From the NCBI GenBank assembly GCA_947650285.1, contig CANTFL010000222.1, positions 49,567 through 113,566 of the forward strand: a DNA stretch of 64,000 nucleotides, written 5' to 3'. This document shows positions 2,518-64,000 of the stretch, piece by piece. Below the pieces are notes generated by a model. The model did not search any database. It was not told the DNA's origin and worked only from the letters and a program-made list of their open reading frames with translations. The position numbers and the translations under genes were made by a program. The stretch comes from Hyaloperonospora brassicae (lineage: Eukaryota > Oomycota > Peronosporomycetes > Peronosporales > Peronosporaceae). Every line of letters begins with the position of its first letter. Position 1 is the stretch's first letter.

Positions 2518-2910
2518 TGTTACGGGGCAGCCCGTTACATGGAAATTGTCGTTTGAGAGATAATGACAATAAAGAATATTATGTTGAATATTCTTTTAAC
2601 AATATCACCAATAGTGGTGATATTGATGGGTCGACCAAAGAGTCTGCTCATTGGTTGATATCTTGACGATATCAACCCACCAATCGCCGCAAGACGCGCG
2701 CAATGAGTGGTGAGTAGACGTCGTCATACATTCAGTTGGATTAGTATAATTAAGTGAGGTCAAACAGAGAGACAGTGGTTAAAGACTTAATTATATTAAT
2801 ATAACAGTTCTGCTTTTACCTTATCTACGCTTCCTCGTTTGCCTCGTGTACGTCTGTCGGGCGCACCGAAACCCTTGCGTTAAGCTCACGCAAGGGTGTA
2901 CCCCGTTACA
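2518..2910 (+). repeat. 5' LTR of gypsy-1
   Basis: This 393-bp LTR pairs with 10109-10501. It contains five strong stem-loops: 2518-2526/2531-2539 (one mismatch here, perfect in the 3' LTR), 2571-2580/2587-2596, 2601-2610/2615-2624, 2653-2662/2668-2677 and 2871-2880/2888-2897. The last four are perfect 10-bp stems. The element promoter and polyadenylation signals should lie here, but I could not place a TATA box with confidence. Confidence 0.9.
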
Positions 2911-2930
2911 CCTGGTAGCACTTCGTAGTC
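2911..2930 (+). promoter_or_regulatory. Primer-binding-site-like sequence of gypsy-1
   Basis: CCTGGTAGCACTTCG directly follows the 5' LTR. The TGGTAGCA core resembles the start of an initiator-tRNA-Met primer site and recurs as TTGGTAGCACTTG after the 5' LTR of gypsy-2, which supports a conserved priming role. The tRNA itself was not identified. Confidence 0.45.
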
Positions 2931-2954
2931 CTTCCAAGGACCACAGCATCCAAC

Positions 2955-4082
2955 ATGAACAAGTTGGATGATGAAGAGACCTCTCACGCCACGCGTGAAG
3001 GGTTAACCCATTTGAGTGACATCGAATGGAGTGCTGTAGAACGAATGAATTCTACCGTAGGCGAATTCTCCATTAGCGCCATGTTGGAGTCTCTAGACAG
3101 AGACCAACAACATGCCGCTATAGCCAAGTTCATTCAAAATGAACTTGTCGCCGAAAGGGAGAAAGTAGTCTTGCTTCACCAGCAAGGCTCTCAACAGGCC
3201 GAGCAGTTGAGAGAAATCGGTGCTTAACAGACGGAGCTGTTGAGACAGCAGCAATTCCATGCTGCTGTGGGCGGGACGGCGCATGCGCGTCGTCCCGAAG
3301 TCATGAAAGTTGACATCTCCAAGTACAGTGGAGTCCCGGAAGAATCCCTGTTACTGTGGTTTGTCGAACTCGACAGAGCCCTAAGGGCTCGTCGCGTCGA
3401 AGATGAGCAAATGAAACTCACATTTGATCAAACCCACTTGGCCGGACGTGCCAAAACTTGGTCCCTGGGGCTCGAGAGTAGCGACCCACATGTGTTTGGG
3501 TCGCTAGATGACTTCAATTCCCGGCTCAGAAAAACGTTTGAGCCGCCACGGGCTGAGTTCAGGGCTCGTTCAGAGCTCCTGAAACTCAAGCAGGGTAAGC
3601 GTGATGTGCACGCTTATGCACAACATATACGACTCCTTGCGAGTAGTATAACTGCAAACCCAGTTCATGAACACACGTTGATTACGGTGTTCATGCAAGG
3701 GCTCGCAGAGGGGCCCGTCAGGAGCCACCTATTCCGCCTTGAGCTGAATATGCTGGTAGAAGCGATATCAGCCGCGGAACAGGAAGAATTTAGCATGAGA
3801 CAGGCTTATGCTAGCTCAAACTCTTATCGTCCACCGAGACGACAAGAGATCGGAGGTCCAGAACCAATGGACCTCTGCTATGTTGAGATCGAGAGACCTC
3901 GCTCTTCGAACAACAAGCGATTGCAGAGGTGCAATCGCTGTCAGAAGTTAGGGCACTACGCATATGAGTGTAGTGCTCCACGCCCAGTACCCAACAGTAC
4001 TAAGCGAAATGGACGACCATTTGCCAGAAAGGTCAATGGGCGTGGGTCCAGCGCTGTTGCGAAACCGCAACAGCGAGACTGA
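2955..4082 (+). pseudogene. gag: gypsy-1 gag (one in-frame stop)
   Basis: This is the capsid/nucleocapsid polyprotein that packages element RNA. The frame opens with ATG at 2955 (M-N-K-L-D-D-E-E), meets a single TAA at 3225-3227, and continues in the same frame to 4082, giving about 375 codons if read through. The middle is a helical capsid-like domain. A CCHC zinc knuckle (C-N-R-C ... G-H-Y-A-Y-E-C) is encoded at 3930-3971. The stop most simply reflects one point mutation (for example CAA to TAA). Nothing around it marks a programmed readthrough signal. Pol begins downstream in a different frame at 4160. Confidence 0.85.
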
Positions 4083-4159
4083 CCATCAAAAAATGGTCGG
4101 GGTCAGTAGGGGCGGAGCGCCCTACTGATCCAGCAACCTCAAGAGAATTTGCAAATCTC

Positions 4160-5587
4160 TTGACGAAAGTTGCTCCAGATACACAATCATTGTGTGTCTC
4201 TGCACCTGGTGATGACGTTTCGCTCATCACCTTGAAGTTGGAAGCGACAAATGATTTGTCGCTTCGTGCCCTAGTAGACTGTGGGGCGTCGAACAACTTT
4301 GTTCGACGCCAGTCACTAGAGGATCGTAGGCTCAAGTTCGTTGAGCGCGACATTCCCCTCACGAGGATGACGGTGCGGCTTGCAACAAGCGCATCGATTA
4401 CCGTTGAGAAACGTGTAGTAGGAATCCACTACGCGTTTGAGGTTGAACAGTACGATGATGACTTCATCGTACTGGATCTGGATGACAAATGTGATGTCAT
4501 CCTGGGATTACCTTGGCTCAGAAAATACGAGCCAAGGGTGAGCTGGCAGCATCGATCCGTGAAGATGCCTGCCGCTTGTTCATCAGATGGCCATCTGATG
4601 AACGTCATGGAGCATCCACAAGCGTGTGGATGTTCTGCGAGTGAGTGCGATGGCCTCACTTGCGGTACGGTCGTTCGCACGACTGCACAAGATCACAGTG
4701 TAGTTGATCACTACACTGTGGAGCAAGCTCCCGGCGGCTGTACAGAAGTACAGGCTGCGCCGAAGGTCCACCACTCGAATAAGTCGAGTGGACCGGGACA
4801 TGGATGCATGCCTAGCGGGCAGCATCTTAGAAGAAAGAAACCTGTTGCCTCCAAAGGGCAACATGGACATCCTAGGTCGACTGGAGAGTCGACCGTAGAG
4901 GATCGGTGCCTGACTGTGGTTGCACAGCCACAGTCAGAAGACGTCGAGAGAATAAGTCCCCACGTACTTGAGGAAGGAATTTCTCAAAAGTCACTTGCTG
5001 AAGGATCAGGCCCTCAGCAACCTGTGGAAGCAAGTTCCCAGGAAGAAACCGAGACGTTGAACGTCTTAGTCAATGACAGATCAATTGTAGGCGCTTATAC
5101 ACTTGATCTGATGGTGCCTCCGAAATTAACTTCGGAGATAACTCAATTGCCAACGCTAGAACCGAAACGGTTCTTGCGTGATCTGCGTAGTGGCAAAGTC
5201 AAGCAGATCTGCATACTCGTCACAGATGATGAGTATGTGGCCGATATTCGGTCGGCCACAGTATTTGCTGAGAACGAACGGATTCTCAGCAGCTCATCGA
5301 TGGACGAAAGTGTCCTCGATGAGAAGACCCGGATTGAGCGATACAAGTCTCAATCCTGGGAGTCACTTCAGGCAAATCCTTTGTATAAGGATTTGATCGA
5401 ATTCAAGGATGTATTTTCTGAATCCGTACCGTGCGATTTGCCGAAGGACAAAGGCACTCGACACGAGATCGAGATCAAACCGGGCTCGAAGTACTGTGTC
5501 ACGAAACAGTGTCCACTGCCTCGAGAACAAGTACTAGCGATCGACAAGTTCTTTGCCGATCGCTTAGCAGCGGTCCATGTGAGGTAA
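4160..5587 (+). pseudogene. pol: gypsy-1 pol, protease and linker to RT
   Basis: The N-terminal part of pol is a retropepsin-like aspartic protease. The active-site motif is L-V-D-C-G-A-S-N-N-F, the D-C-G-A-S version of D-T/S-G common in chromovirus-type elements. The C-terminal I-L-G hydrophobic motif follows (V-I-L-G-L-P-W-L). A long hydrophilic linker of about 300 residues leads into the first RT residues (I-E-I-K-P-G-S-K-Y). The frame ends at TAA 5585-5587, where a glutamate codon would be expected, and a one-base deletion a few codons later moves RT into the next frame. The segment is rich in perfect hairpins, including a 26-bp palindrome at 4578-4603. Confidence 0.85.
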
Positions 5588-6669
5588 TCGACATCCCTCA
5601 CACCTCTCCGACCTTCTGTGTGCGAAAGGCCACAGGAGGATGGCGGATAGTGCACGCATTCAACAAATTGAATGCTGCAACGGTACCGGCTCAGACGCGA
5701 ATACCGAGGAAGGACGTAATCATAGATGGTGTGTCAAAGAGTACCATCTTTTCGTCCATGGATCTGATGGACGGATTCTATCAGATCCTCATGCGTGAAC
5801 GGAACATCCCGTACACAGCAGTGAGCATCCTCAGCGGTATAATGTGGGAGTGGCTAGCGATGCCACAGGGGCTGAGCAATGCCCCTGCTACTTTCAACAG
5901 ATGTGTTACAAATCTGGTGAGACCTGTGCGAGACTTCGCACCGAGTTACTTCGAAGATGTGTTCGTTCATAGCCGGGCTATGGACGGAAAGACGGACGTT
6001 GAAGTTCACAGAACTCACGTTCGTCAGGTTCTTCAACTTATGCGCAAGCATAAGTTGTACGCCAACCTCAAGAAGTGCATATTCGCGGCTAGCGAAATAC
6101 CACTTCTTGGGTGCATCGTGGGTAAACACGGCGTACGCCCTGATCTCGAAAAGATCAAGGCTATCACCAATTGGCCAGTGCCATTCGATGTCAAGGGGCT
6201 AAGGAAGTTCCTTGGGCTAGCGGCGTACTTGCACAAGTACTCGCGCAACTACGCCGAGATGAATGTTCATCTTTCTTGCTTGCTCAAGAAAAATGTCAAG
6301 TGGTCATGGAACGCTGAGTGCCAGCGTTTCTTTGAAGGTATCAAGCAAAGATTGATGCAATCGCCGATCTTGGCGATTGCAGATCAGGACAGACCATTTC
6401 ATATGGTTTGTGACGCCAGCGATTTTGCAATCAGCTGTGCGTTAATGCAATTTGACGCAGATGGCGCGGAGCGCGTCATCTGTTATCAGTCGCGTCAGCT
6501 GCAAGCAGCTGAGCGCAATTACCCAGTGCATGACAAGGAACTCCTTGCCATGAAGTACGCACTGGCTAAGTTCCGGATCTATCTATTGGGAGATAGACCG
6601 TTCATCGTCGATACGGACCATGCGTCATTACGCACGGTCGCAAAAGCCCACACATCTCGCAAAGAATAG
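5588..6669 (+). pseudogene. pol: gypsy-1 pol, reverse transcriptase and RNase H
   Basis: After the lesion near 5585-5598 the frame stays open to 6669. Visible RT blocks are S-P-T-F-C-V-R-K, W-R-I-V-H-A-F-N-K-L-N, F-S-S-M-D-L-M-D-G-F-Y-Q (catalytic Asp), the L-P-Q-G-like block M-P-Q-G-L-S-N-A-P-A-T-F, and the YxDD box. That box reads Y-F-E-D at 5947-5958, so the first catalytic Asp is Glu. RNase H follows (V-C-D-A-S-D-F-A; E-L-L-A-M-K-Y-A; D-H-A-S-L-R-T). A one-base deletion near 6640 causes the stop at 6667-6669; the true continuation is one frame over (S-Q-R-I-A-R-W-L-S-F-F-A-E-Y at 6657 on). Confidence 0.9.
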
Positions 6670-7217
6670 CGAGGTGGCTGTCTTTCTTCGCGGAGTATAA
6701 CTTCTCCTTGGATTATAAACCAGGACGACTACTCGTCGTCGCGGATGCGCTCTCGCGCCGGCCCGATTTCGAGCCGGACGCACAACCAAACAGTAAGGAT
6801 AAGCCCACTGTTGCGACACTGTCAGTCAGTGTTCCGTCGTCAAGCTTACTTGACGACGTACGAAAGGCATACGCAGAAGATAAGGATCTTATGCGATTGA
6901 TGGATCATCTGGTGAAACCATCCAGTAAATCAATGAGGGATTTACCGGCTTTGTACCGATCCTCATCGGATCGGTATAGTACACGCAACGGATTGCTGTA
7001 CTATACAGCTGTTGCCGACGACACGCCTCGTGTCGTCGTACCCGCTCATCATGACTTGCGTTTGCGCATCATGTATGAGTGTCACGATGCCCCAACAGGC
7101 GTCCATCGTGGTAGAGAAAAGACTTACCTCACGGTAAGTCGTGAATTTTACTGGCCCCGCCAGTACCTGTTTACACGCAAGTACATACGTGCTTGCGAGG
7201 TTTGCCAACGGGTGTGA
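6657..7217 (+). pseudogene. pol: gypsy-1 pol, RNase H end and integrase zinc domain
   Basis: The frame covers the end of RNase H (D-Y-K-P-G-R ... V-A-D-A-L-S-R-R) and the integrase HHCC domain: H-D-A-P-T-G-V-H-R-G, then Y-W-P and C-E-V-C. It ends at TGA 7215-7217 because of an apparent 2-bp (TG) duplication in GTGTG. The next frame (from 7193) continues K-P-S-P-S-S without loss. Confidence 0.85.
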
Positions 7218-8023
7218 AGCCTAGTCCTTCATCCCGTGCGCCATTACAGCCTCTGCCTGTTCCGACAGAGTGCTGGCTGTCCGTTTTAATGGATTTCGTC
7301 TTCGGTTTTCCCGAAGACGCTCACAAAAATAATGGTATTCTTGTGTTTGTTGACCGATTCAGCAAGATGGTCCATCTTGCTGCTGTACCCGAGTTGATCA
7401 AGGCTCAAGGTTGTGCTCGTGTTTTTCTCGACACGGTCTTTAGACTCCACGGGTAACCCCGTGAACTCGTATCCGACCGTTACTCTCGATTCACGGCGGA
7501 ATTTTGGCAATCCGTGTTCCGTTCTCTCAAAACACGGTTGACGATGTCCACTTCTGACCATCCCAAAACAGATGGTCAGAAGGAATGTGCGAACCGTGTC
7601 CTCGAAGAGATCCTTCGAGGATATGTCCACTCGTTGTCGAGTTGGAGCGAATTCCTACCCACGGTGGAATTCGCCATCAATAATTCGGTGCATGCCTTAA
7701 CACAGCACACACCGTTTTACGTGAATGGTTTACGCGATCCACGCGTGCCCGCCCTTCTAGAGTGTAACTCTTGGATAAGGGGGGAGGGACTCGTTCGAGC
7801 AAAAACCGTTTTGGCTCTTGCTCATCACGTGTCGACGCTAACGTCGTCACGTATGATGCCGATGTCGATCAGGTCGACATCGATGAAGCACACCACCGCA
7901 ATAATAGCGACAACGCTATTATTGGATCGGATGATGATGACGATGCTGGTATATTCAGCATCGTCAACGATTATTCCAGCGAGGAAGAAGACAACCTCGC
8001 TGAAGAAGAGAGCAATCTCTTAG
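7193..8023 (+). pseudogene. pol: gypsy-1 pol, integrase catalytic core
   Basis: This is the rve-type integrase core that joins element DNA to the genome. The three catalytic positions are visible: Asp in V-L-M-D-F-V-F-G, Asp in V-S-D-R-Y-S-R-F, and Glu in K-T-D-G-Q-K-E-C. An in-frame TAA at 7454-7456 falls where a Leu codon is expected (L-H-G-stop-P-R-E-L). The frame continues to about 7770, after which a one-base shift in the G-rich run near 7778 moves the tail into the frame beginning at 7771. Confidence 0.85.
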
Positions 8024-9003
8024 TAGTGCGCACGAAGCGCACTGAAAGACAAAACAAAGAGTCAGCAGAGAACTTCTTGCTGAATCGAGAAGCGGTAGTC
8101 CGTTTCGTTCAGGACTCCATCGCAAATGCGGTGGACCGCCAGAAACGGAACGCAGACAAGAATGGAAGAGCAAATGTTCTTTCATTTAGAGTTAACGACC
8201 TAGTACTACTGTCTACGGTAAACTTACCTGGACATGCAGTCACTAGTGTCGGCAGTAGTAAACTACTGCCGAAATACGTTGGGCCATTTCGAGTGTTGCA
8301 TCGCAAGGGCAATGCATACACACTCGAATTGCCACGTAAGATGCGCACGCATACTACGTTTTACGTGGGGAGGCTTAGGTCGTACTGTCAGTACGAGCCT
8401 TCTTTTTTCGATGAAGATAGCCCCCACCTTCAAGAACATCCATCAAGTTCTCGCGTTCGCGCTCCAGACGATCCGTCTGGTCGCGCAGATATGATACCTC
8501 GGAACTCAAGCGAGATATCTCTCCGCGAGCTGTCGCCAGCTCGCCGTAAAGGGAGCGGACATCCCGCTCGACCTGAAGCTGCGCTGTGGCATAATCGGCG
8601 CGGTCTCTCGCCCAATCATCCTCGCGATCCTTGCGGTTCTTCCGCACGGTATCAGTCAAAGCGTAGCGCCGGTCGCGCTCGTGCTTCAAGTCATCGCGCA
8701 ATTCATCGATTGTGCGATCCATCTCGTAAGGGTCGAGATGGTGAGCAGAATCATCTGGAGGAGGTCTTTCCTCCTCCACCACATCCTCTGGTGGATTCTC
8801 ACGGTGGCCAACGATTTCTAGTGGAGCGTATCTTGAATCAACGTGACGATTCAGGATCAAGGACGAGCTACCTTGTCCAGTGGCGGGGGTATCCACCCTC
8901 TTGGAACAGCTGGGAGCCCCGCTCTCAGCTGTTGATGGATGTTGAAGGTCTCGTCCGCCAGTATGACGAGACTCATCCGATTGGCCCTATGGCCCATCTG
9001 TAA
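7771..9003 (+). pseudogene. pol: gypsy-1 pol tail: GPF/Y module and chromodomain
   Basis: The frame is open for 410 codons. It holds an acidic spacer (D-D-D-D-D, E-E-E-D), then an integrase C-terminal module with K-Y-V-G-P-F-R-V and L-P-R-K-M-R-T-H. A low-complexity Arg/Ser/Pro stretch (about 8440-8800) follows. It ends in a chromodomain encoded at about 8815-8985 (F-L-V-E-R-I-L, Y-L-V-Q-W-R-G-Y, W-N-S-W-E-P). In chromoviruses this domain directs integration to modified chromatin. The low-complexity stretch is the part that reads as a coiled coil on the opposite strand. Confidence 0.85.
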
Positions 9004-9976
9004 ACACGCGCCCTAGGCGCCTGTAGACGGATTGCAAGTTAGCAATCGCGTCACGCATCTCAGCCGAGATGTGTGCCCTTCCCCAGGGCGAACTTAGGGA
9101 ATACACGTCCCTATGTGCACGCTGCGAGTTGTAAACACAACTCGCACAAGGGTCTCCCCATGTGAGGCAAGGAATGTCTGCCTCACTCGACAAACAGTGC
9201 AACCGGTACCTTGCACCGGTTGGCGTTCGCTTTTCGAACCTGAGGCGTACCGCCTCAAGTTTCTTGAGCCACCCTTCTCGTCTAAAATTCTTTACGTTTT
9301 GGACGAACGCGTTCCACGCAGCCAAAAGCGATGCTTTGTCACGCTTTTGGTTGCTGTCGTACGATCGGTGTCTAAGAAAGACATCGGGATAAAAATCTTC
9401 TTTAGCGCGAAAGTTCTTCGCGCTGGAACTCAAGCCGTGAAGCTCAGTCGCATCGAATAAGGGTATTCAATGGTGTTGGCTTGTCTCGTGAGACAAGCCA
9501 TTGATGAGCCGTTCGGGCAGACGCCACGGCTTCAGCTCATCACGCTTCAAAGTGGTACCCTTGTCGGTACCACGGTTGTCAGTATGACGATGGCTTGCAC
9601 CATCGTCAAGTCGCTCGTGCGAAGGAGCACGAGTTGATCGCGGTGATGAGCAATCATACTCATCATCAGACTCATCATCACTTCCGAACAGACTGTGACG
9701 CATGTCACGAGTTCGTATGTCCGGCAGTGTCGTGGATGAATGAGGCACCGCAGGTGAACGCGATGCCTCCAAAGGCTTTTCCGAGTCAGACACGTCTGAA
9801 TCGCCAGAGTAGATGACCTCAACGTCGGGGTCATCGTGCGCACGCGGTGTTGTACCGCGTGCACCTGCAGCACCTGTTCCTGCAGGCGGAGAACGAGCAG
9901 CAGACGACGAATCGTCTGCCGCAGAGGCTGGCACAGCAGCGGACTGTGCGTGTCTTGGGTCACCTCGCATAGACAT
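8375..9976 (-). pseudogene. Antisense ORF of gypsy-1 (unknown protein with coiled coil)
   Basis: On the - strand one frame runs from ATG at 9976 to a stop at 8375, 533 codons, broken only by TGA at 9469-9467 and TAG at 8989-8987. The N-terminus is Ala/Ser/Pro-rich and disordered; residues 51-61 form an acidic motif D-V-E-V-I-Y-S-G-D-S-D. The middle is basic (S-S-A-K-N-F-R-A-K). The C-terminal part (about 8722-8431) is a clear heptad-rich coiled coil (for example I-D-E-L-R-D-D-L-K). It faces pol, overlaps the chromodomain on the other strand, and starts just before the polypurine tract. I do not recognise the family. Gypsy-2 has a related frame in the same place, which argues against chance. 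Hairpin density could inflate strand symmetry, so protein-level conservation is the key test. Confidence 0.6.
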
Positions 9977-10069
9977 GTTAACTATGCGAGGTCAAGCGGA
10001 AAGTGAATGGAACAGACCCAACAAGTGATCCCTGTCCCAATGGTGCCCAATGAGTGGCCGCCATATTTT

Positions 10070-10108
10070 TGATAGTCATACGGTGACTATCAGTTAAGAG
10101 GGGGGTGA
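10070..10108 (+). promoter_or_regulatory. Hairpin and polypurine tract before the 3' LTR
   Basis: A perfect 9-bp stem (TGATAGTCA at 10070-10078, TGACTATCA at 10084-10092, loop TACGG) sits directly before AAGAGGGGGGTGA. The purine run is the expected priming site for plus-strand DNA and abuts the LTR start at 10109. The hairpin is also about 95 bp upstream of the antisense ORF start. Confidence 0.65.
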
Positions 10109-10501
10109 TGTAACGGGGCAGCCCGTTACATGGAAATTGTCATTTAGAAGATAATGACAATAAAGAATATTATGTTGAATATTCTTTTAACAACATCACC
10201 AATGGTGGTGATATTGATGGGTCTATCAAAGAGTCTACTCATTGGTTGATATCTTGACGATATCAACCCACCAATCGATGCAAGACGCGCGCAATGAGTG
10301 GTGAGTAGACGTCGTCATACATATATTTAGATTAGTATAATTAAGTGAGGTCAAACAGAGAGACAGTGGTTAAAAGACTTAATTATACAAATATAACAGT
10401 TCTGCTTTTACCTTATCTACGCTTCCTCGTTTGCCTCGTGTACGTCTGTCGGGGCAACAAAACCCTTGCGTTAAGTTCACGCAAGGGTGTGCCATGTTAG
10501 A
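10109..10501 (+). repeat. 3' LTR of gypsy-1
   Basis: A 393-bp direct copy of 2518-2910, starting TGTAACGGGGC. The first stem (10109-10117/10122-10130) is perfect here. The terminal bases read GTTAGA rather than GTTACA. The right neighbour is the 3' end of the LINE RNase H frame. Confidence 0.9.
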
Positions 10502-32034: not shown

Positions 32035-32039
32035 CCCGG
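32035..32039. repeat. Target-site duplication, left of gypsy-2
   Basis: CCCGG here and again at 57532-57536. Removing gypsy-2 and one copy restores an unbroken gypsy-C integrase frame across the junction (G-H-S-P-G-N-M-V-P-E). Confidence 0.9.
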
Positions 32040-32512
32040 TGTAACGGGGTTACACGTCGACTGGTAGTCGACAATAGGTAGGGTGCACACAAGGGATGAG
32101 ATCCCCTGTAAAGTAATATTAGAACAAAAGTATCAATTGTTGAAGACTGATGTCTGTCAACCATTGATTACGAGATCTTTTAATAGGTTTATTTAGGACA
32201 TAAGTGGTAGGTTATTTACTTTGTTCTACGGTGTTCTTTAAATGAAAAGAAGAAATAAAATTCAGTTCCCATTTTGATCAACATAAAACACGTGCCTTGC
32301 GAGGCGTCTTGATCGGAAGAGCTAGCAACGCCTGTAAAGGTAGCTGTTCTTAAGCATTCTGTGCTGTGATTCTCTTGAATTATTTGGTCCCCCTGGAACA
32401 GAGACCGTAAGCTCTCTAAGCTTGTTGACTCTTTACGTCGGAATCCTAGAATCGATTCCTCTTTGAGCGTTAAGTCTTCCTCTGACTTAAGGAGGTGTGT
32501 AGCTCCGCTACA
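32040..32512 (+). repeat. 5' LTR of gypsy-2
   Basis: 473 bp, pairing with 57057-57531. It has short stems such as TGTAAC/GTTACA at the start, TTAAGTC/GACTTAA near 32471-32491 and GTAGC/GCTAC at the end. It is followed by CTTGGTAGCACTTG, a primer-site-like sequence resembling that of gypsy-1. Confidence 0.92.
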
Positions 32513-32571
32513 CTTGGTAGCACTTGTAGTCAATCTACACCTGAGTCTTTAACGATTGATTTTCTGTGAGG

Positions 32572-33603
32572 ATGGAGAAATTCACAATCCTCTCTGAGTT
32601 TCAAAAGGTCGCGCTTGAGAAGCTGACCGCGGCCGTAGGCCCTGAGTATGTGGAGTTTCTAGCTGCATAAGGTCCCGATGTGCTCAATGCACGAGTCGAG
32701 GCATTCATGCAGTATAAAACGACCTGTTAGGGCAGGTTCAAAACCAAGTAGCGTCGGCTATGCCAACACGATACGTGGCGATGCCAGATGAAGAGGCTAA
32801 GCCTTGTCCCCTTCGGGTGGACGTTAATTATTACTCCGGAAAGGAGGGGGAAAACTTGACCCTCTGGATCTGTGAGATTGAGATGGCCATGAGCTCTGGC
32901 CTTATCTCACTGGAGTACCAGCAGGTCTCGCTGGCCATCTCCAAGCTCGACGGAAGAGCTAGAGAGTGGGCTCTGACATGTAGCACGTCGGTCGACTTGG
33001 CGTTTCCCACATGGGATTCGCTCAAGTTAGACCTTTTGCGAGTTTTCTCGCCGCCTAAACAGGCTTATCGCGTGCGCTTACGCTTCTTGTCTACCCTTCA
33101 GGGAAAGAATAAGCTAACAGACTATATCCAAGAGTTGAGAACTCTTATGACTGCTATGCAGTCCGACCCTATCCCTAAGACAGTCTATGTGACTGTCTTC
33201 ATGGAAGGTCTTCATGATGGCGTTGCCAGGCCCGAGGTACTTCGGGTCCATCCCTCTACTTTTGAGGAGGCTGTTAGCATCGCTCAAAATGCTGAGCACA
33301 ACTTCAAGATGGCCAGACTTGGTTGGAATGGGTACAACCCAAGCTTTGCGAGGGCAACCTCTGCGAGCACCTCGGCTTACTATAAGCTAGAACCAATGAA
33401 TCTCAGCCATGATGAAGATGAAGCTGAAGCGGAGATTCATGTTGCAGAGCAAAGACAGTAAGTGAAACGCTGTTATATGTGCGGAAGCACTAAAACTTGC
33501 GTCTATGTTGTCCTTTGCGTAAGCAACAACCGGCTCCTATGGGCCAAAACCCCAGCTACAACCAGAAACCTCGTATGGCACGGGAAAACGTCGATACCCA
33601 GTA
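32572..33603 (+). pseudogene. gag: gypsy-2 gag
   Basis: An ATG at 32572 (M-E-K-F-T-I-L-S-E-F) opens a frame with three stops before 32760. A frameshift leads to the long open part 32760-33461 with a capsid-like region (L-T-L-W-I-C-E-I-E-M, L-A-I-S-K-L-D-G-R-A-R-E-W, F-S-P-P-K-Q-A-Y-R). After TAA at 33459-33461 a damaged zinc knuckle is split over two frames (C-Y-M-C-G-S ... L-R-L-C-C-P). Confidence 0.85.
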
Positions 33604-33779
33604 GGCGCGGGGCGCCCTACTGAGGTAGAACTGAGTTCTGTTGCTTCTCTACGAGGAAGAGTGAAACAGGGCTTAGCCCCACCGAGCTATGTGCCCACCA
33701 TCACAGAGCGTGGATGTAAGCCTGGCTTGTTAGCCGCCGAGGCTAAAGTTTAAGGCTTTGGGAAGCATTGTTCGATCTT

Positions 33780-34202
33780 AATCTACTCCAGAGCATCATC
33801 TAATTATGCTCGACGTCGTTCCCTTGAGAGGAGTCAGCGATACGCTGAAGCGCTCAAAGCGCATGAAGGTGATTCGATCAACGTTTGTATATCGACTGGT
33901 AGTCTCTTCACGGTGCCTAAAGTTCCGTTGAACTTAGGTGTAAAGTTTTGGACTTTGACAGCATTGAACGCTGTCTTGTCCTCGATTTGGATTCGAAATA
34001 CGATCTCATCCTGGGAATGGCTTGGCTTGAACTCCATGAGCCATGGATTGATTGGAGGTCTAAGACCTTAGGCGCCACGCGCAATGTTCCTGGCGAAGCT
34101 TTGGAGAGTCATGAACCCACCTTTGCTAGGCAACAAAAGCGCTATTGGCGCGAGCCATTGACGGAAGATGCCAATGTGCTGGACATTGGTATGTCAGAGT
34201 AA
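33780..34202 (+). pseudogene. pol: gypsy-2 protease
   Basis: The region lines up with the gypsy-1 protease. The active site has decayed: Y-S-R-A-S-S-N-Y stands where D-C-G-A-S-x-N is expected. The C-terminal half is better kept (L-V-L-D-L-D-S-K-Y-D-L-I-L-G-M-A-W-L, 33980-34027), in another frame. It ends at a TAA at 34200-34202. Confidence 0.75.
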
Positions 34203-34370
34203 ATTAAATTCAATGTCACCGACACGGAAATTGAGCGGAGATCTTAATCGTATGTGACGAGACTTATACTCCGTTAAGTGATACTCGTTGTGATACTGAG
34301 TCACTGCATGCTGCAGGCATGGTTGGCCTAGGGCCGAGACATCAAGAATGTATTTTCTCTGATGAGAGTG

Positions 34371-34758
34371 GAGTTGCACGTGAGATCCCACCGAGTGAGG
34401 GCGGCCGAGGTGTCACCTCACTGAATGTCGGTAATGACATTGATGGAGAGAAATTAGCGTGTTCAGGGCTAGGCCCGAATGCTGTACGTGAAGTGGCACG
34501 CAAAATTCCACCGAGTGAGGGCGGCCGAGGTGGCACCTCACTGAATGTCGGTAATGACATTGATGGCAAGAAATTAGCGTGTTCAGGGCTAGGCCCGAAT
34601 GCTGTACGTGAAGTGGTACGTGAAATTACACCGAGTGAGGGCGGCCGAGGTGGCACCTAACTGAATGTCGATAATGACATTGATGGCAAGAAAATAGCGT
34701 GTTCAGGGCTAGGCCCGAATGCTGTACGTGAAGTGGTACGTGTAAATCCACTGGGTGA
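34371..34758 (+). repeat. 120-bp tandem repeat, three full units and a partial
   Basis: The block repeats with an exact 120-bp period (34381, 34501, 34621, then a decayed start at 34741). Each unit encodes about 40 residues, including P-P-S-E-G-G-R-G and L-N-V-G-N-D-I-D-G and C-S-G-L-G-P-N-A-V-R-E-V. The first two units are open in one frame (34319-34660); the third has a stop. It lies in the variable linker between protease and RT. Confidence 0.9.
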
Positions 34759-34801
34759 AGTGTTCGAGTTACGTAACACTTCACCAGATGTCGTTTAAGA
34801 C

Positions 34802-35327
34802 ATGAGCTCTCGTATAGAGCGTGCTAAGATAAATAGCAACCACGAGGAACCGACTGTCCCGGACTCTATGAGGCGAAAGGTTTCTTTGAGGAAACAATCT
34901 CAGCGTAGGGTGGCAACTGTTAAGCGCCCAACGTCTAAGAAGTCACGAAGTGATAATAGTAATAATACATTATATACACTTTTCAATGGGTTGACTGGCC
35001 AGATTGATGGCAATATTAGTCTTGAGACTCTTCCATCCTTGGATACTCTCTTTGAAGTAGACGAAATGTCTGACGGCGAACTTTAGCCAAGCCTTACAGG
35101 CATGAGAATTATCCGAGTTAGTGGTCATTCGGCCGGATAATGAGTTGAGCTCATCCTCGTTATTGGACGAGTCAGTCCTTGAGGACACAAAGGGGGCATT
35201 GAATGCATGTAGTGGATCTTCAATCTTTAATGATCCTCTTGATCCGTTCTATCCTTTGGTAAAGGAATTTCAGGACTTGGTGTGTCACAACCCACCGTTT
35301 GTCTTGCCTCCCGATGGAGGCGTACGT
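34802..35327 (+). pseudogene. pol: gypsy-2 protease-RT linker
   Basis: Two frames, 34802-35086 and 35121-35327, give a basic then acidic linker ending [20 protein letters not shown]. The matching continuation (E-I-D-W-V-P-G-T-K-Y-C-V-T-R-Q) appears only at 51142, so this is the left edge of the 15.8-kb insert. Confidence 0.8.
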
Positions 35328-36662
35328 CTTGGACTCCTTGTCCAGATCTTCTGACCACTTGAGCCGCCTCGCGATCTTGTGACTAAAATTCTTTTCCGTT
35401 GTTGCTGCTACCCTAGCAGTTTGAGTTGAGTTGAGTTACCTTAACCCCACCTTGGCCAAACAATCCAAGGTGAGTACACAAAACACGGTGCGGCAAAGTC
35501 TCTTGATCGACGGGAGGCTAAATATCCTGCCCCGAAGAGAAGTCTGCGACGTGCTTTATTAGTAAAAACGGTAACTGCTTTATTATCCAACCAAATTAAT
35601 AGTCAACCTATCCTTAAGCCTATTTCAAACTGTAGGTCACTCTCCAAGTCGATATCAACTTTAAGCTTGACCGCCTCCTTGAACACGTGTCGAAATTTCA
35701 TCATCTGTACTCCAAAGATAGCGCCAATACTCCCGATATCGTGCTTAAAGGCCCAGAAGAGACCAAATCCCAAATACGGTGCCAAATTCCCAATTTTGGT
35801 ACCAAAAGGTCCGAAATAGTACTTACGTGCCAAATGTGCCTAAATCCATTTTGCGACGTCAGTTCGACCGGCTTCCACCGGCTCTTTTGGTCTGAACTTT
35901 TGAGATATCACTCATGGACCTTCAACAAAAGATTTATCATGTTACAAAGTCTCATCAGCAATATTTCCATGATTAACAGGGAACATGACCGATCTGGTGC
36001 CCAATTCGAGATCGGTGAGATCGACACATTATAATTTAATAGTAGACATTTTCCCGTTGATTGTGTGTGCCTAAATACCATCCTCTAAGGTTTATCTGAT
36101 CAGTGGAAAAATCCACGCGTCTTGAAATGGGTCCCTGGACTCTCATAAGTATTCATACTTCCAGATCAGGCTTTTTATAACCAAAATCAGTATTCTTATT
36201 TTGGGACCGGTAAAGAGTATCACCGATCTGCAAGATGTTGCACCTTGGTTACAGGATCACATCGCATCACCTGGTTTCATGTGCACCTTTCCCAGAGTAA
36301 TTCTGCCACAGTACCCAGTCTTCACCTGCGTCAACACACACATTGTTGTCCTTGACCAACCTTCAAGCGGATCGCTTGACTTCATCCCTTCCTTTGTCCC
36401 AGACCGCCCCATAGAAATCATATATACCTGCGACTCGTCCCAGATTGTTCCATGAAAATAATCCCTTTCTACGCCTCGTCTTAGATCGTTCCATGTCCAT
36501 CATTCTGTCGATAGTTGGATCTGCTCGTTGAGTCTCGTTGGAATAGCCTTCCATCTCCCATTGGATCGCTAGATCATCCGGTGTCGTTTTCTGCCAGTTG
36601 ATGAAGTCTCAACTAGGTGGCCACAGATCCACATCCCAAAATTGATTAGCGACTTTACCACA
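35328..36662. repeat. Truncated copy of the 1859-bp LTR-like repeat
   Basis: Similar, with drift, to about 53768-55080. Landmarks shared in order include ACTCCTTGTCCA, TCGCGATCTTGTG, CCAAATTAATAGTCAACCTA and CTCCAAAGATAGCGCC. The first 540 bp of the intact copy are missing here. No coding region was found. Confidence 0.65.
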
Positions 36663-37824
36663 ACCACCCCCATTATTGAACTCCTTTGTACAGCAATTGA
36701 CTTCAGTTCAATCACTCATCAAATTAGATACAATTACTTAAGTTCTCCCATGTCCCCACTTATACATCACTTCACCTCGCCGTCTCCTTTGGATCGCTCC
36801 TCCGAACCTCTGTCTCCTGATCGAGATATGTCATCCAGATCGCCCGATCACGTCAGATTGCTAGATGTCACAGATTTTTCTAGATCACGACACGTCACTT
36901 AAATCGCTAGATCTTCAAATCCTTTCAGATAACCTTTATGGTAAAATCGTCCATCGGATCAATTGTCTTGTCCGGATTACCGCTCGTTTGCATAGGATCG
37001 CCAACCTAAATCGAGCTTACCGGACGTTTTGTCAGATCGCGGCACATCTTGTCGACAGTCTGGTCTCCAAGCACATTTCCATTTCCGTCGGTTTAACATA
37101 ACTCGTTGAATCGGCCAAAAATATCTCTATCTCTACTCGTCCCAACAGGATCACCGGGTCGACAGCCTGAGTTGAGCCAATCCCATGTTTCACCAGATTA
37201 TCAGATCTTCAAACTCCAGTGCAACTAGCCTTTTCCCAGATTTCATCGGAAACCGTTGCACCTAGCTTGGTCCCATATCGGGTCGTTGCTTAATAAAAGG
37301 AACTGTCATACTTCCAGATACTGACTGCCATAAATTCGATTCTTGTCCCATATTGGAGGCACAGGGGCCACTGTCGTCAATTTTCTTGAAATGACTTTAC
37401 CACAACCGCCCCCTGTACCGAAGTCTTTCGTAAAGCGACCGATCTCAGTCTAAACACTCGAAAAAGATCAATCATGTCATCAAGTATCATTCTCATGTCC
37501 TCGTCTCCACATCACCCGGCTTTGTCGCCCCATCGCATTGTCAACCGAACCCCATTATTTGGATCGGGACACGTCGCCCAGATCGTCAGATCTTCAGAGG
37601 CATATTCCATCACCTCCCGATCACCACCGCCCTCCGGATCGTTCAGATTCGTTTGTATCGTCACCTGTCCGTACAGGGTCACCGGACCGACAACCGGAGT
37701 CGAGCCCATCCTACCTTTCACCAGTTCGATAGTTAATTCGGCTCCACTAATATCGCCAGTCGATCAACCTAGATCTTCAGTCTCGGGTCAGATCGCTATC
37801 CGTTCGAGCGAATATCTCCGCGAA
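36663..37824. other. Non-coding mosaic segment
   Basis: C/T-rich sequence with many GATC and TCAGATC motifs. A part near 36650-36740 recurs, diverged, near 37385-37470 (GACTTTACCACAACC), suggesting an old internal duplication of about 740 bp. No gene is supported. Confidence 0.45.
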
Positions 37825-38985
37825 ACTTGACCTACGCGTCAGCTACTAAGTCCAGAGGAGAATCTGAATGAGAAGCACGAGGAGAACACTGGAGCCGATC
37901 TTGAGCTTCACCGAGCTTAAAACCACGTACGAATACTAGTTTCGGTATTCATAACGCCAGAGTGCGCTGACACGGATGCGACGTATCAAAGACATCTGCA
38001 GATGCGAGGAGCCCTGCGAATAAAACGAGGGTGGTAGCGACAAACGACCTCGATCGAAATTCACCTGTCACATAGGGGATTGAGCCGACGTTATGCGCAA
38101 CTAACAGCGAGCTGACCCGTGATGGAAGAACAGAATATCTCGGTTCGCTCGCATGTCAATAGTCGACCTTGATTTCCGAGCGACTACTTGACCGCCACGA
38201 GCACGAAGAAAAGAGTACGGAACAGCTTACAGTTTGATAAATTAACAGCAGCAGTCGACTCCGGTGGTGACGGGGACTTGGACCCGTCATCACTCGATAC
38301 AAACAAATGCGGTGGTGTCGACGAAAAAGTGGCTGCTACTCCAATTGTTGAAGTTTGTGGCTAGCTCTGAACCGCTGAATTCGTTTCTTCTTCTTAGGTG
38401 AACTGCTGGGTCGTCCATCGGTGGAAGCAGCTGAGGCGTTGATAGCAATGATAACAACAGATGGAGTCGGTGGGGTGAAGGAAGATTTGTTATTCTTCTT
38501 CGATGGGCGTTTTAAATACGCGCTGGTCGAGACAGAAGGGACGTCCGCCGAGGAGGCTTGAACAGAAACTAAATCGGGTGATGGAAGTAGGAAAAAAATT
38601 CTTTTAAATAAAGCCCTAACAGACGACCGGATAGTGGGGACGACAGAACACGCAAATGCAGCAACAACGAAGGCGGTCGGCGATGTCGATGACGCCACGT
38701 CAAATACGGCTTCACTCGACGAATTGGGCGCGATGATGCCGACAGGACAACAGTTAAAGCAGCTTAGGTGTGGAACGGCGGCGGATGGTAATTAGGACAC
38801 AGTTGCGAAAGACCGGCGAGTTCTCATCCTAAAAGGTAATGCGGTTGGGGCAGCAGGTGTAATGGCCACTTAGGATCTTCATGATCGTGCGGAAGCATTC
38901 AAGGCCTTAAACTTCTTAAATGACTTGGCTGATCGCTTGGTAATAATAGAACGGACTGCACCCACCTTTCGACGCGACTAGGCCG
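37825..38985 (-). pseudogene. Inverted partial copy of the gypsy-C antisense gene
   Basis: On the - strand this matches 28800-29975 of the + strand in order. Both have G-R-P-(S/T)-S-S-P-K followed by I-Q-R-(F/Y)-R, T-S-H-P-C-Q, A-Q-D-R-L, and a final V-K-F-R-G-D-like stretch. It is the best evidence that the unknown gene at 26859-30536 is a repeated unit rather than random open frames. Similarity stops at 37825 and at the array edge. Confidence 0.6.
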
Positions 38986-39022
38986 GTGACACAACTGTGA
39001 AATAGCAGTTATTTAAATCTGT

Positions 39023-40927
39023 CCATTGCAGGCAGTAGAATGCAGGCAACAGCTACGATAGAGTGGCAGTTGCAGATTCTATGGAGTGCGGAGCGTCCAC
39101 GGACAAGTATGTGTCTCCATTGCGGGCCGCCGACAGAGGTGCAACGCGCCAAATTTGTCATGACAAGGCCAAGTTTGCAAGCCTAATCAAGCTTGACGAT
39201 GAACGGCCACGGGGAGGTAGCCTATGGAAACGAGGCGGCTATCTAGGGTGTGCAGACCGTTCTTCCATACGCGAACGGGTTAAGCCCAAACAAGGTGATT
39301 TGCAAGATGATCACCACCAACATGATCAAGAAATGAACAGCCCCGCCAATTCAAGCGGATCGAGCACATATCGAGGTTGTCAGCGAGAAAAGATGGCCCA
39401 GAAACAATTTCCAAGCAACCGGGAGGGGCATCATTTTGACGCGTTCGAGCTGCTTCGCTTCGACATATGTGGGCCAATGGAACGGTTTTTACTGGGTGGC
39501 AGCAAGTTTTTGCTGCTGATTGTGGTGGAGGCCAGCGGATACATGAACGGCTTTTGCCTACGAGCGAAGTCGGAGACTGAAGACTGCACTATGAAGTACA
39601 TCGTGATGGTGGACTCGCAATCAGACGAGAAGGCCAAGTTTGTGCGATACGATGGTGCTCGCGTGTTCGCGACCAACACGCTTCAAGTGTTCAGAGAAAA
39701 CGAAGGTACCGAGCAGCAAATCACGGTTCCGTATACATATCAATTCAACGTAACAGCAGAACGCGCGATTCGAGCTATCTTCACGATCGGCCGCAGCATT
39801 CTCCATCATGCCAAGTTAGACAAGTGTGTATTGGCGGAAGTTGCGATGACGGCTGTTTACGTCAATAATCGTCTACCGCCACCTAATATCTAGCACAAGA
39901 CACCGTTAGAAATTGTCTACGATTTCAAGCCAACTGTCAAGCACATGCGAGTGTCCGGTTGTCAGACGTACATACTGATGTGGTGTAGTAGTTCGTTGAA
40001 TCTGTAATACAACAGCCCCAACGTACAAACACAACAGTCACCGAGATTAGAAGGCAAAACGGGCTGGTACGTGAGGGCAATCTCCTCGCGGTTCGCCCCT
40101 TCGGGGTTCAGTTGTGCTCTTGCCGAATAAAGTCCTTACAACCAATTTCTCCAGAAGTCTGCCTGAGCTCAGCAGCTTCTAACCCTTTCACTCCCTGTGA
40201 CTTCACGCCGAAGGGAGGAAGCCGACGCTCACGCGTGATTACAGGCCACGGGCGCAGTATCCGACCGACTAGAAGTTTTCGGTGCCCTCAGCTGAGGCCC
40301 ACCATCTTGTCGCTCGACAAGCCTCTCACCAGTGCCGTCTATTAGGTCCACCGGCTTGTTACTTGACAAGACTCGAACAGTGCCGGCTATTGGGTCACTG
40401 GCTCGTCGACGACGAGGCTCTTTCATTCGCTGGTAGCGAGTGTTGTCCAAACAGGGCCTTCCCAATCTCTTGGCGCCACCAGCCAAAACTTTTATGGGAT
40501 ATGCATCTCGAGGTTCGACGACAGGCATAACCTTTCTCGCGCAGAGACTTACCGTAAGTGTACGCGTGTCAGTAAATTAGAAAGATCTGCACTGTATTGT
40601 TTAATCTCTTTTGCTGTGTCGCAGAGCCAGTTTGAATGACTCTCTATCCTTTTCTTTGTTCTTTATACAAATAAATGATGAATCTGACGTTCGATCATTC
40701 TAGTGCTTTGCATCATGAACGTGAATTGGCCGATATCTGGCTCGCCGACCTGTAATTTGCCTGCTTCAAGTTCGCCGACCTCCGATTTGTCGACCTCCGA
40801 TTCGCCGACCTCAAGTTCGCCGACCTTCGATTTGTCGACCTCTGATTCGCCAACCTCCATTTTTGCTGGCCTCCGGTTTTACTGACACCCAGTTCACCGA
40901 CACCCAGCTCGCCGACAGTCAACTTAT
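39023..40927 (+). repeat. Array copy 1 (left-truncated)
   Basis: It starts within the copia fragment, lacking the gag knuckle. The integrase-bearing frame is 39063-39893 (D-I-C-G-P-M-E-R-F-L-L-G-G; V-R-Y-D-G-A-R-V-F). The LTR part is 39979-40712. The minirepeat tract at 40720-40925 is the longest of the set. Confidence 0.85.
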
Positions 40928-49642: not shown

Positions 49643-51141
49643 ATGGAATCCGTTTTCGAGCATTCCCTTTACCACAACGTCAATTGGAAAGCCGGGAAGA
49701 TGACGACCACGACGACAACAACGGTGAAAGCTGATAACACAGCCAAGGCCTTCAGTACTGAGCGTGAGCCCTATCAGTGCACTTACTGCGGCGGGGCGGG
49801 GTACACGGTAGAGCGTTGCTGGACGAAGTAGAAGGATGAAAGTCAAGGAAACCGACGCGGCGGTAATGTCTGTGGACGCGAGGCTAGCAATGTCCATTGA
49901 AGTCATCATGATGCAGGCAACAGCTACGATCGAGTGGCAGTTGCAGATTCTATGGAGTGCGGAGAGTCCACGGACAAGGATGTGTCTCCATTGTGGGCCG
50001 CCGACAGAGGTGCAACGCGCCAAATTTGTCATGACAAGGCCAAGTTTGCAAGCCTGATCAAGCTTGACGATGAACGACCACGGGGAGGTAGCCGATGGAA
50101 ACGAGGCGGCTATCTAGGGTGTGCAGACCGTTCTTCCATACACGAACGGGTTAAGCCCAGACAAGGTGATTTGCAAGATGATCACCACCAACATGATCAA
50201 GAAATGAACAGCCCCGCCAATTCAAGCGGATCGAGCACATATCGAGGTTGTCAGCGAGAAAAGATGGCCCAGAAACAATTTCCAACCAACCGGGAGGGGC
50301 ATCATTTTGACGCGTTCGAGCTGCTTTGCTTCGACATATGTGGGCCAATGGAACGGTTTTTACTGGGTGGCAGCAAGTTTTTGCTGCTGATTGTGGTGGA
50401 GGCCAGCGGATACATGAACGGCTTTTGCCTACGAGCGAAGTCGGAGACTGAAGACCGCACTATGAAGTACATCGTGATGGTGGACTCGCAATCAGACGAG
50501 AAGGCCAAGTTTGTGCGATACGATGGTGCTCGCGTGTTCGCGACCAACACGCTTCAAGTGTTCAGAGAAAACGAAGGTACCGAGCAGCAAATCACGGTTC
50601 CGTATACATATCAATTCAACGTAAAAGTAGAACGCGCGATTCGAACTATCTTCGCGATCGGCCGCAGCATTCTCCATCATGCCAAGTTACACAAGTGTGT
50701 ATTGGCGGAAGTTGCGATGACGGCTGTTTACGTCAATAATCGTCTACCGTCACCTAATGTCTAGCACAAGACACCGTTAGAAATTGTCTACGATTTCAAG
50801 CCAACTGTCAAGCACATGCGAGTGTCCGGTTGTCAGACGTACATACTGATGTGGTGTAGTAGTTCGTTGAATCTGTAATACAACAGCCTCAACGTACAAA
50901 CACACCAATCACCGAGATTAGAAGGCAAAACGGGCTGGTACGTGAGGGCAATCTCCTCGCGGTTCGCCCCTTCGGGGTTCAGTTGTGCTCTTGCCGAATA
51001 AAGTCCTTACAACCAATTTCTCCAGAAGTCTGCCTGAGCTCAGCAGCTTCTAACCCTTTCACTCCCTGTGACTTCACGCCGAAGGGAGGAATCCGACGCT
51101 CATGCGTGATTACAGGCCACGGGCGCAGTATCCGACCGACT
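49643..51141 (+). repeat. Array copy 6 (right-truncated)
   Basis: The frame 49934-50764 differs from the central copies at several residues. The LTR part begins at 50850 and is cut after CCGACCGACT at 51141, with gypsy-2 RT sequence directly after. Confidence 0.88.
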
Positions 51142-63779: not shown

Positions 63780-64000
63780 TGTAACGGGGCACACCCTTGC
63801 GTAACTTAACGCAAGGGATTTGGGTGCCCCGACGGACGTACACGTGGCGAGCGAGGAAGCGTAGGTAGGGTAAAAGTAGAACTGTTATATTAATAAATTA
63901 AGTCTTTAAACTACTGTCTCTTCGTTTGACTTAATTCAATTATACTAATATAACTGCATGTATGGTGACGTCTCGTCACCACTCATTGCGCGCGTCTTGC
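63780..64000 (-). repeat. Inverted gypsy-1-family LTR, truncated by window end
   Basis: The reverse complement matches the 3' part of the gypsy-1 LTR: ACCCTTGCG...CGCAAGGGT hairpin, GTACGTC, ACGCTTCCTCG, TTAATTATA-like runs, and GCAAGACGCGCGCAATGAG at the edge. No primer-binding site follows on the gypsy-C side. This is therefore either a solo LTR or the 3' LTR of a - strand element lying beyond 64000, inserted in gypsy-C gag. Confidence 0.85.

What the first reader, a model, noticed from the sequence alone, without database searches (positions are those of the whole stretch)
2518..10501. Gypsy-1 is a chain of perfect short hairpins from end to end
Perfect inverted repeats with short loops recur every few tens of bases through LTRs, gag, pol and the antisense region. 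Stems of 9 bp or more that I located: 3479-3488/3497-3506, 3916-3925/3930-3939, 4052-4061/4066-4075, 4285-4294/4301-4310, 4448-4458/4464-4474, 4694-4704/4710-4720, 4910-4919/4928-4937, 6034-6043/6048-6057, 6836-6844/6849-6857, 6974-6982/6998-7006, 7016-7025/7029-7038, 7361-7370/7372-7381, 7551-7561/7572-7582, 7899-7909/7914-7924, 7939-7948/7956-7965, 9322-9330/9342-9350, 9477-9487/9490-9500, 9963-9972/9982-9991. With about 8000 start positions and 25 loop sizes, fewer than one perfect 10-bp stem is expected by chance. Many fall in conserved protein motifs, so synonymous codons were evidently shaped around them. Causes could be template-switch repair of imperfect palindromes during reverse transcription, or selection for a structured RNA (packaging, or RNA silencing). 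I saw no comparable density in copia-A, the LINE or gypsy-C; gypsy-2 shows it weakly.
Basis: partly seen in the sequence, partly recalled or inferred. Interest (0 to 1): 0.87.

Follow-up and report, generated by a model that had tools for sequence, protein, structure and literature searches.

The report
Retrotransposon folded into hairpins throughout
An oomycete jumping gene has most of its 8,000-base sequence arranged as well over a hundred short, near-perfect hairpins that selection appears to keep intact even at silent codon positions, far more than the neighbouring elements compared here, although what the folding is for is still unknown.

Summary
All 18 listed stems are perfect. The region holds 82 perfect stems of 8 bp or more against a mean of 2.9 in 60 shuffles. 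All 52 family loci read (42 distinct copies) show it. A young copy holds 138 non-overlapping stems of 7 bp or more in 7,975 nt. Codon-preserving shuffles do not reproduce it (56 against 1.5). Neighbouring elements lack it or show it weakly.

With stems defined in one subfamily only, variants shared between other copies avoid stem positions in pol (0.31 of the unpaired rate) while private variants do not (0.91; p = 2.7e-6; third codon positions 0.25 against 0.87); the 3' piece shows no such contrast. Fixed differences between subfamilies include 8 compensatory pairs against 0.66 expected. Stem length peaks at 8-10 bp. Both strands fold equally.

Loops are inverted in some copies (29 against 475 at one hairpin), a known sign of template switching, but arm homogenisation is not clearly seen. 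Best reading: selection for a chain of short hairpins, perhaps shielding the RNA from antisense and small RNAs. The function is inferred.

The parts
2518..2910 (+). 5' LTR of gypsy-1, with hairpins at 2571-2596, 2600-2625, 2653-2677 and 2871-2897
3228..4082 (+). gag frame (capsid, zinc knuckle), with hairpins
   Evidence: Pfam Retrotrans_gag 1.4e-14, Ty3_capsid, zf-CCHC_3
4004..9003 (+). pol: protease, reverse transcriptase, RNase H, integrase zinc domain, Tf2-type SH3 and chromodomain, in broken frames in this copy; with hairpins
   Evidence: Pfam RVP_2, RVT_1, RT_RNaseH_2, Integrase_H2C2, SH3_Tf2-1, Chromo; open up to 1,666 codons in a young copy
8375..9991 (-). antisense gene, split in three frames in this copy; 539-codon antisense frame in 3 of 4 young copies examined (462 in the fourth)
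10109..10500 (+). 3' LTR with hairpins 10162-10187, 10244-10268 and 10462-10488; a purine-rich tract lies just upstream
3479..3506 (.). hairpin, 10-bp stem (perfect in 0 of 14 other copies, within one mismatch in 13)
3916..3939 (.). hairpin, 10-bp stem
   Evidence: perfect in 13 of 14 other copies
4052..4075 (.). hairpin, 10-bp stem
4103..4128 (.). hairpin, 9-bp stem, 8-nt loop that is exactly inverted in copy L016
4241..4265 (.). hairpin, 12-bp stem, 1-nt spacer
   Evidence: compensatory changes across copies
4285..4310 (.). hairpin, 12-bp stem
4448..4474 (.). hairpin, 11-bp stem
4578..4603 (.). perfect 26-bp palindrome (13-bp stem, no spacer), the longest stem in the window copy
4694..4720 (.). 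hairpin, 11-bp stem; perfect in 23 of 30 other copies
4910..4937 (.). hairpin, 10-bp stem
6034..6057 (.). hairpin, 10-bp stem
6356..6381 (.). hairpin, 10-bp stem
6835..6858 (.). hairpin, 10-bp stem
6974..7006 (.). hairpin, 10-bp stem; in clade B the differences fall mostly on the left arm
7016..7038 (.). hairpin, 10-bp stem, loop CCT, inverted to AGG in L050
7297..7319 (.). hairpin with 5-nt loop; 475 genomic matches with a direct loop form and 29 with the inverted form
7360..7382 (.). hairpin, 11-bp stem
7899..7924 (.). hairpin, 11-bp stem; several compensatory pairs between clades
7938..7966 (.). hairpin, 11-bp stem; loop inverted in L016 relative to L029
8249..8272 (.). hairpin, 11-bp stem
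9322..9350 (.). hairpin, 9-bp stem; perfect in 12 of 13 other copies
9477..9500 (.). hairpin, 11-bp stem
9962..9992 (.). hairpin, 11-bp stem

Best explanation
Gypsy-1 is a copy of a large, recently active Ty3/gypsy family with a chromodomain. Its replicating lineage is under purifying selection to keep nearly the whole element folded as a chain of short hairpins (stems mostly 7-10 bp, loops mostly 3-8 nt, one every ~58 nt in a young copy). Shown here: the hairpins exist in every copy read, greatly exceed codon- and dinucleotide-shuffled controls, are conserved in pol (also at third codon positions) among variants shared between copies, change in compensated pairs more often than chance, and are fewer in most diverged copies. 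Also shown: both strands fold equally well by prediction. Inferred: the folded form protects the genomic RNA, and any antisense RNA, from pairing with complementary RNA and small RNAs, while stems stay too short to be good Dicer substrates. [quoted passage not shown] Loop inversion by template switching is then a side effect of having hairpins.
For: Excess over controls: (MFED 48-49% on the two strands of young copy L043, 37-40% in the window copy, 30-31% in RNA phages MS2 and Qbeta computed the same way, 0.5% in copia). All 52 loci (42 distinct copies) carry it; loci of copies with long open frames have 10.5-14.4 stems of 8 bp or more per kb, the 20 diverged ones 7.8-12.8, the window copy 8.4-9.2. 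Stems defined only in clade B: paired/unpaired rate ratio in the 27 other sequences 0.91 for singletons and 0.31 for shared variants, p 2.7e-6; third codon positions 0.87 and 0.25, p 1.4e-4; arms shifted by 13 columns give 0.96 and 1.08; a second definition of stems gives 0.85 and 0.48, p 0.009. Fixed differences between clades: 8 compensatory pairs of 444 against 0.66 by permutation, none of 2,000 reaching it; reverse direction 6 of 366 against 0.21. LTR stem positions change less than unpaired ones (0.08-0.22 against 0.30-0.33). Stem lengths of 7-12 bp in L043 number 22, 35, 31, 27, 7, 2 with loops of 3-14, and 27, 36, 33, 26, 11, 4 (plus one of 14) non-overlapping with loops of 0-14, a hump instead of the steady decline of shuffles. 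For the silencing idea: P. infestans small RNAs map in both orientations along its two most abundant Gypsy elements, and its LTR elements give about twice as many 21-nt as 25/26-nt small RNAs (PMC3522703, passages); structured viral RNAs escape innate recognition (PMC3950689, abstract).
Against: No RNA was probed and no small-RNA data of this organism were seen; the function is inference. A wobble test gives no support to sense-RNA folding: G.T and A.C mismatches in helices are equal (16 and 14 fixed ones in young copies; 17 and 19 shared variants in the pol alignment). That test is weak, because four RNA phages also give 19 and 16. The 3' piece shows no contrast between private and shared variants (0.67 and 0.65), nor do second codon positions (0.70 and 0.76); first positions give 1.22 and 0.47, p 0.09, and third positions under the second stem definition 0.76 and 0.42, p 0.07. 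At the end of pol (7917-9003) stems of clade A are not conserved in either clade-B copy (paired 0.24-0.26, unpaired 0.24-0.27). The 3' region is partly coding on the other strand, so conservation there has another possible cause. Hairpins might feed Dicer instead of evading it: in maize, miRNA-like structures in transposons correlate with more small RNAs (PMC10760457, abstract). No relatives from other species could be read as DNA.
Confidence: 0.5

Rival explanations
1. The hairpins are made and kept by template switching (quasi-palindrome correction) during replication of the element: one arm is rewritten from the other, and selection plays no part beyond protein coding.
For: Loops are inverted in individual copies: 12 of 114 same-length loop pairs with 3 or more differences are reverse complements (exact, or within one base for loops of 6 or more), falling on 6 hairpins; exact reverse complements 11, plain complements 2, plain reversals 0 among 481 pairs with 2 or more differences. 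At hairpin 7297 there are 475 direct and 29 inverted matches, counting copies and not events. One stem (7899-7924) carries several compensatory pairs at once between clades. Mismatches show no wobble preference. The mechanism is reported for yeast genes (PMC8604942, abstract and section 6) and proposed for RNA gene hairpins (PMC8794818, passages).
Against: Of 529 clusters of private changes only 6 match a nearby reverse complement over 10 nt or more (expected 1.0), and 3 of the 6 are loop inversions, not arm repair. Unselected arm copying predicts concerted change at about the unpaired rate; in the LTR and 3' region double compensatory changes are 0-4 of 43-153 pairs while unpaired sites differ by 16-33%. 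The fall above 10 bp is not obviously expected. Diverged copies tend to have fewer stems.
Confidence: 0.27
2. The hairpins are repeated binding sites, for example for Gag or another protein during packaging, spread along the genome.
For: Fairly uniform unit size (109 of 138 hairpins span 20-28 nt) and spread over the LTRs, gag-pol and the 3' region.
Against: No fixed spacing was found (CV 0.64 against 0.59 for random placement) and base frequencies per stem position are nearly flat; loop motifs were not searched systematically. The hairpins lie in the LTR about as densely as elsewhere (12-15 against 17-21 per kb).
Confidence: 0.13
3. The pairing matters at the DNA level: single-stranded minus-strand cDNA or extruded cruciforms, not RNA.
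For: Strand symmetry of folding (-5.87 and -5.77 mean z in L043, difference -0.09 +- 0.22; all six RNA controls were lower on the sense strand, by 0.24 to 0.75, but only 23S rRNA by as much as three standard errors) and equal G.T and A.C.
Against: RNA phages, selected as RNA on both strands (recalled), give a similar wobble balance, so the symmetry does not exclude RNA. No DNA-level role for hairpins along a whole retrotransposon is known to me (recalled, not searched).
Confidence: 0.1

Closest known systems
[quoted passage not shown]
   Same: Folding energy far below shuffled controls along the whole genome, made of many consecutive stem-loops, with less diversity at paired sites (PMC7642675, passages).
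   Different: Here it is an LTR retrotransposon. Many stems are perfect and of narrow length. MFED is about 48% in my computation against 15% reported for SARS-CoV-2 and 23.4% as the highest in that paper; methods differ, and MS2 gives 30% in my computation. [quoted passage not shown]
Template-switch mutations at inverted repeats (yeast genes; RNA gene hairpins)
   Same: Perfect short inverted repeats and exact loop inversions (PMC8604942, abstract and section 6; PMC8794818, passages).
   Different: Those are isolated loci; here over a hundred hairpins fill one element. Arm homogenisation is not clearly detected.
Ty3 and Ty1 retrotransposon genomic RNA of yeast
   Same: Ty3/gypsy domains (Ty3); structured RNA genome.
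   Different: Their RNAs are described as a mosaic, with stable structured regions up to 30% of the RNA (PMC11381356, abstract and section 29), not an end-to-end chain of perfect hairpins.
Gypsy-2 of the same genome
   Same: Ty3/gypsy element in the same host, with a mild excess of stems in its left part (14 against 4.3).
   Different: MFED 10.5% in its left part against 37-49% in gypsy-1.

Membership tests
Ty3/gypsy LTR retrotransposon (chromodomain type) | LTR pair flanking gag and pol | tested here: met
Ty3/gypsy LTR retrotransposon (chromodomain type) | gag, protease, RT-RNase H, integrase in gypsy order, with chromodomain | tested here: met
   Pfam matches; the integrase core was not matched in the frames given to that call
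Ty3/gypsy LTR retrotransposon (chromodomain type) | primer binding site matching a host tRNA | not tested
   sequence after the LTR read, no tRNA compared
Genome-scale ordered RNA structure | folding energy well below shuffled controls along the whole genome | tested here: met
   52 of 53 windows of 150 nt in L043 have a sense z of -3 or lower (25 shuffles each); mean MFED 48% over 22 fragments
Genome-scale ordered RNA structure | lower diversity at paired sites | tested here: met
   for the pol piece; the 3' piece shows lower diversity but no private/shared contrast
Genome-scale ordered RNA structure | the structure forms in the RNA | not testable with these tools
   needs chemical probing
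Template-switch-generated inverted repeats | exact loop inversion between related copies | tested here: met
Template-switch-generated inverted repeats | clusters of changes that make one arm complementary to the other | tested here: inconclusive
   3 non-inversion cases among 529 clusters; about 1 expected for all classes together

The most novel reading that the evidence does not exclude
A whole retrotransposon genome is selected on both strands to fold into units of about one helical turn, long enough to block annealing to antisense RNA and small RNAs but too short for Dicer, so that the element carries its shield against RNA silencing in its own coding sequence.
Probability: 0.28. Interest if true: 0.92.

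Novelty: new variant of a known kind. Interest (0 to 1): 0.78.

Why it matters
Genome-wide RNA structure is known from RNA viruses. The listings of my searches (some capped, most listed papers not opened) showed no report of an LTR retrotransposon filled end to end with perfect short hairpins. With several hundred copies of different age in one genome, the family is a natural experiment: resident copies approach the unselected state and young copies show the selected one, so structure at silent sites can be separated from mutation. It makes testable whether transposons hide from RNA silencing by folding, and offers many cases of loop inversion at known hairpins.

Tried and rejected
Chance and composition: rejected by dinucleotide and codon-preserving shuffles. 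A general feature of the retroelements of this genome: rejected by copia and gypsy-2 in the window and by two loci of a gypsy-2-like family, one with a mild excess (6 against 2.1) and one without (2 against 2.1). Artefact of one copy: rejected; L049 is the poorest copy (5.4 per kb, and 2.7 per kb in its 3' piece, which aligns badly).

Wobble test as proof of a DNA-level process: first taken as decisive (my notes say so), then dropped when the RNA phage control gave the same balance; the rRNA control had too few cases. The greater share of G.T and A.C among shared mismatches is explained by a general excess of transitions among shared variants at unpaired sites. Loop composition: loops are A-rich (about 0.31), but I judged the A over T asymmetry weak and draw nothing from it. 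Polarising changes with L049 failed because L049 is nearer to the young clade than to clade B. Regular spacing of hairpins: not found. Relatives in viral and prokaryote contig collections: none. The expected number of double changes used one third as the chance of a match and so understates it; one search replaces it. The first, possibly circular form of the private/shared comparison is replaced.


Full report
What was checked. The finding says that gypsy-1 (2518-10501) is a chain of perfect short hairpins. All 18 listed stems are perfect at the stated places. An exhaustive scan found 82 perfect stems of 8 bp or more with loops up to 25, 52 of 9 or more and 31 of 10 or more; 60 dinucleotide-preserving shuffles averaged 2.9, 0.7 and 0.27. 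In 2-kb bins the rest of the window holds at most 4 stems of 8 bp or more, against 8-24 in the five bins that cover the element. Sampled 150-nt stretches fold well below shuffles through most of the element on both strands, while most z values elsewhere lie between -2 and +2, with a few down to -3 or -4, as near 35 and 56 kb. Two sampled stretches of the window copy (near 2701 and 5401) are near background.

What it sits in. The element has LTRs at 2518-2910 and 10109-10500, a gag frame, protease, reverse transcriptase, RNase H, integrase zinc domain and a chromodomain, in broken frames in this copy. Among the 120 listed of 1,565 matches to its RT-RNase H piece, the nearest named proteins are from oomycetes, chiefly Phytophthora and Peronospora, so the host is an oomycete, probably of the Peronosporaceae (inference). 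The assembly has 100.6 Mb in 898 contigs. At one hairpin alone 504 exact matches were counted (475 plus 29), so the family has several hundred copies. Of four young copies examined, all have long sense frames (gag 343-396 codons, pol up to 1,666), and three carry a 539-codon frame on the opposite strand over the end of pol and the 3' region, the fourth one of 462.

The property belongs to the family. All 52 gypsy-1 loci read, which are 42 distinct copies including the window's own, show it: 5.4 to 14.4 stems of 8 bp or more (loops up to 14) per kb, three shuffles of each giving 0-5 per locus. Loci of copies with long open frames have 10.5-14.4 per kb, the 20 diverged ones 7.8-12.8, the window copy 8.4-9.2. 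A young copy, L043, has 138 non-overlapping stems of 7 bp or more, mean spacing 58 nt. In its 4,017-nt pol frame 56 stems of 8 bp or more stand against 1.5 in codon-preserving shuffles (maximum 6 of 60), and the register in which third codon positions face each other is the rarest (12 of 72 stems). Stem lengths of 7 to 12 bp number 22, 35, 31, 27, 7 and 2 in L043 with loops of 3-14, and 27, 36, 33, 26, 11 and 4 plus one of 14 when non-overlapping stems with loops of 0-14 are taken. Mean MFED is 48.0 and 48.8% on the two strands, against 30-31% for MS2 and Qbeta, 10.5% for the left part of gypsy-2 and 0.5% for copia.

Selection. I defined stems only from three diverged copies (clade B: L016, L028, L029) and looked at variants among the 27 other sequences of the pol alignment. 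Singletons, mostly mutations of resident copies (inference), hit stem sites at 0.91 of the unpaired rate; variants shared by three or more copies, most of which must have been transmitted, at 0.31 (19 on 736 sites against 200 on 2,419; p 2.7e-6). At third codon positions the ratios are 0.87 and 0.25 (p 1.4e-4), at first positions 1.22 and 0.47 (p 0.09), at second positions 0.70 and 0.76 (p 0.8). With stems defined within the 27 and only rarer shared variants (3-6 copies) the ratios are 0.85 and 0.48 (p 0.009), third positions 0.76 and 0.42 (p 0.07). Arms shifted by 13 columns give 0.96 and 1.08. In the 3' piece the ratios are 0.67 and 0.65, without contrast; fewer old copies were available there (all). 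Between clades A and B, fixed differences in stems of A include 8 compensatory pairs of 444 (0.66 expected, 0 of 2,000 permutations) and in stems of B 6 of 366 (0.21 expected), while paired sites differ by 5.6% and 3.3% and unpaired ones by 11%. In the LTR, paired sites differ by 8-22% and unpaired ones by 30-33%; in the 3' region by 6-10% and 16-18%; at the end of pol, stems of A are not conserved in B (24-26% paired, 24-27% unpaired). In the old copy L020 compensatory double changes (2 against 0.7) are no more in excess than non-compensatory ones (5 against 1.4).

Template switching. Among copies sharing the same arms, loops are found exactly inverted: an 8-nt loop in L016, 5-nt loops in L018 and between L015 and L025, a 7-nt loop between L016 and L029, and shorter ones elsewhere. 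At the hairpin at 7297, 475 genomic matches have a direct loop form and 29 the inverted form; these are copies, not events. Such inversions are described for yeast genes and attributed to switching between strands (PMC8604942, section 6 read). Clusters of private changes do not show clear arm repair: 6 of 529 match a nearby reverse complement over 10 nt or more, 1.0 expected, and 3 of the 6 are loop inversions. I therefore read the inversions as a consequence of the hairpins. A role in first making the stems stays possible.

Strand and molecule. Folding is equally strong on both strands (difference of mean z -0.09 +- 0.22), while two rRNAs and four RNA phages were all lower on the sense strand by 0.24 to 0.75, most of them within about two standard errors. 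Wobble mismatches are not favoured, but RNA phages show nearly the same balance, so this does not separate RNA from DNA. It agrees with selection acting on both strands.

Function. This part is inference. In Phytophthora infestans small RNAs map along the two most abundant Gypsy elements in both orientations (PMC3522703, passages). A transcript folded into short stems would pair more slowly with antisense RNA and small RNAs, and stems of 8-10 bp are about one helical turn and short for dicing (recalled, no call). Structured viral RNAs escape innate recognition in mammalian cells (PMC3950689, abstract). Against this, miRNA-like structures in maize transposons correlate with more small RNAs (PMC10760457, abstract).

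Limits. No DNA of other species was available. The p-values treat sites in related copies as independent, not as changes on a tree.

Noticed in passing
8375-9991 (-); intact in L043 6215-7831 (-): An antisense gene of 539 codons overlaps the end of pol and the 3' region; 12 homologues were found, the named ones being uncharacterised proteins of Peronospora matthiolae, with only weak coiled-coil-type Pfam matches.
   Followed up: partly
39000-50800: Repeat units spaced mostly about 2,110 bp, 95-100% alike over most of their length, several with a frame of about 287 aa (one was scanned, without Pfam match), lying between two 300-bp repeats that look like gypsy-2 LTRs (32039 and 57056).
   Followed up: no
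34368-34758: Three tandem copies of a 120-bp unit inside gypsy-2.
   Followed up: no
63805-64000 (-): Start of another, diverged gypsy-1 LTR (82% to the 5' LTR) in antisense at the window end, keeping one of the LTR hairpins.
   Followed up: partly
32039-39000: Gypsy-2 shows a mild excess of hairpins in its left part (14 against 4.3 at 7 bp or more), and in its right part only when 6-bp stems are counted (25 against 14.6).
   Followed up: partly
L010-L038: Copies in one genome span a range of divergence (83-95% to the window copy over the pol piece), useful for dating bursts.
   Followed up: no
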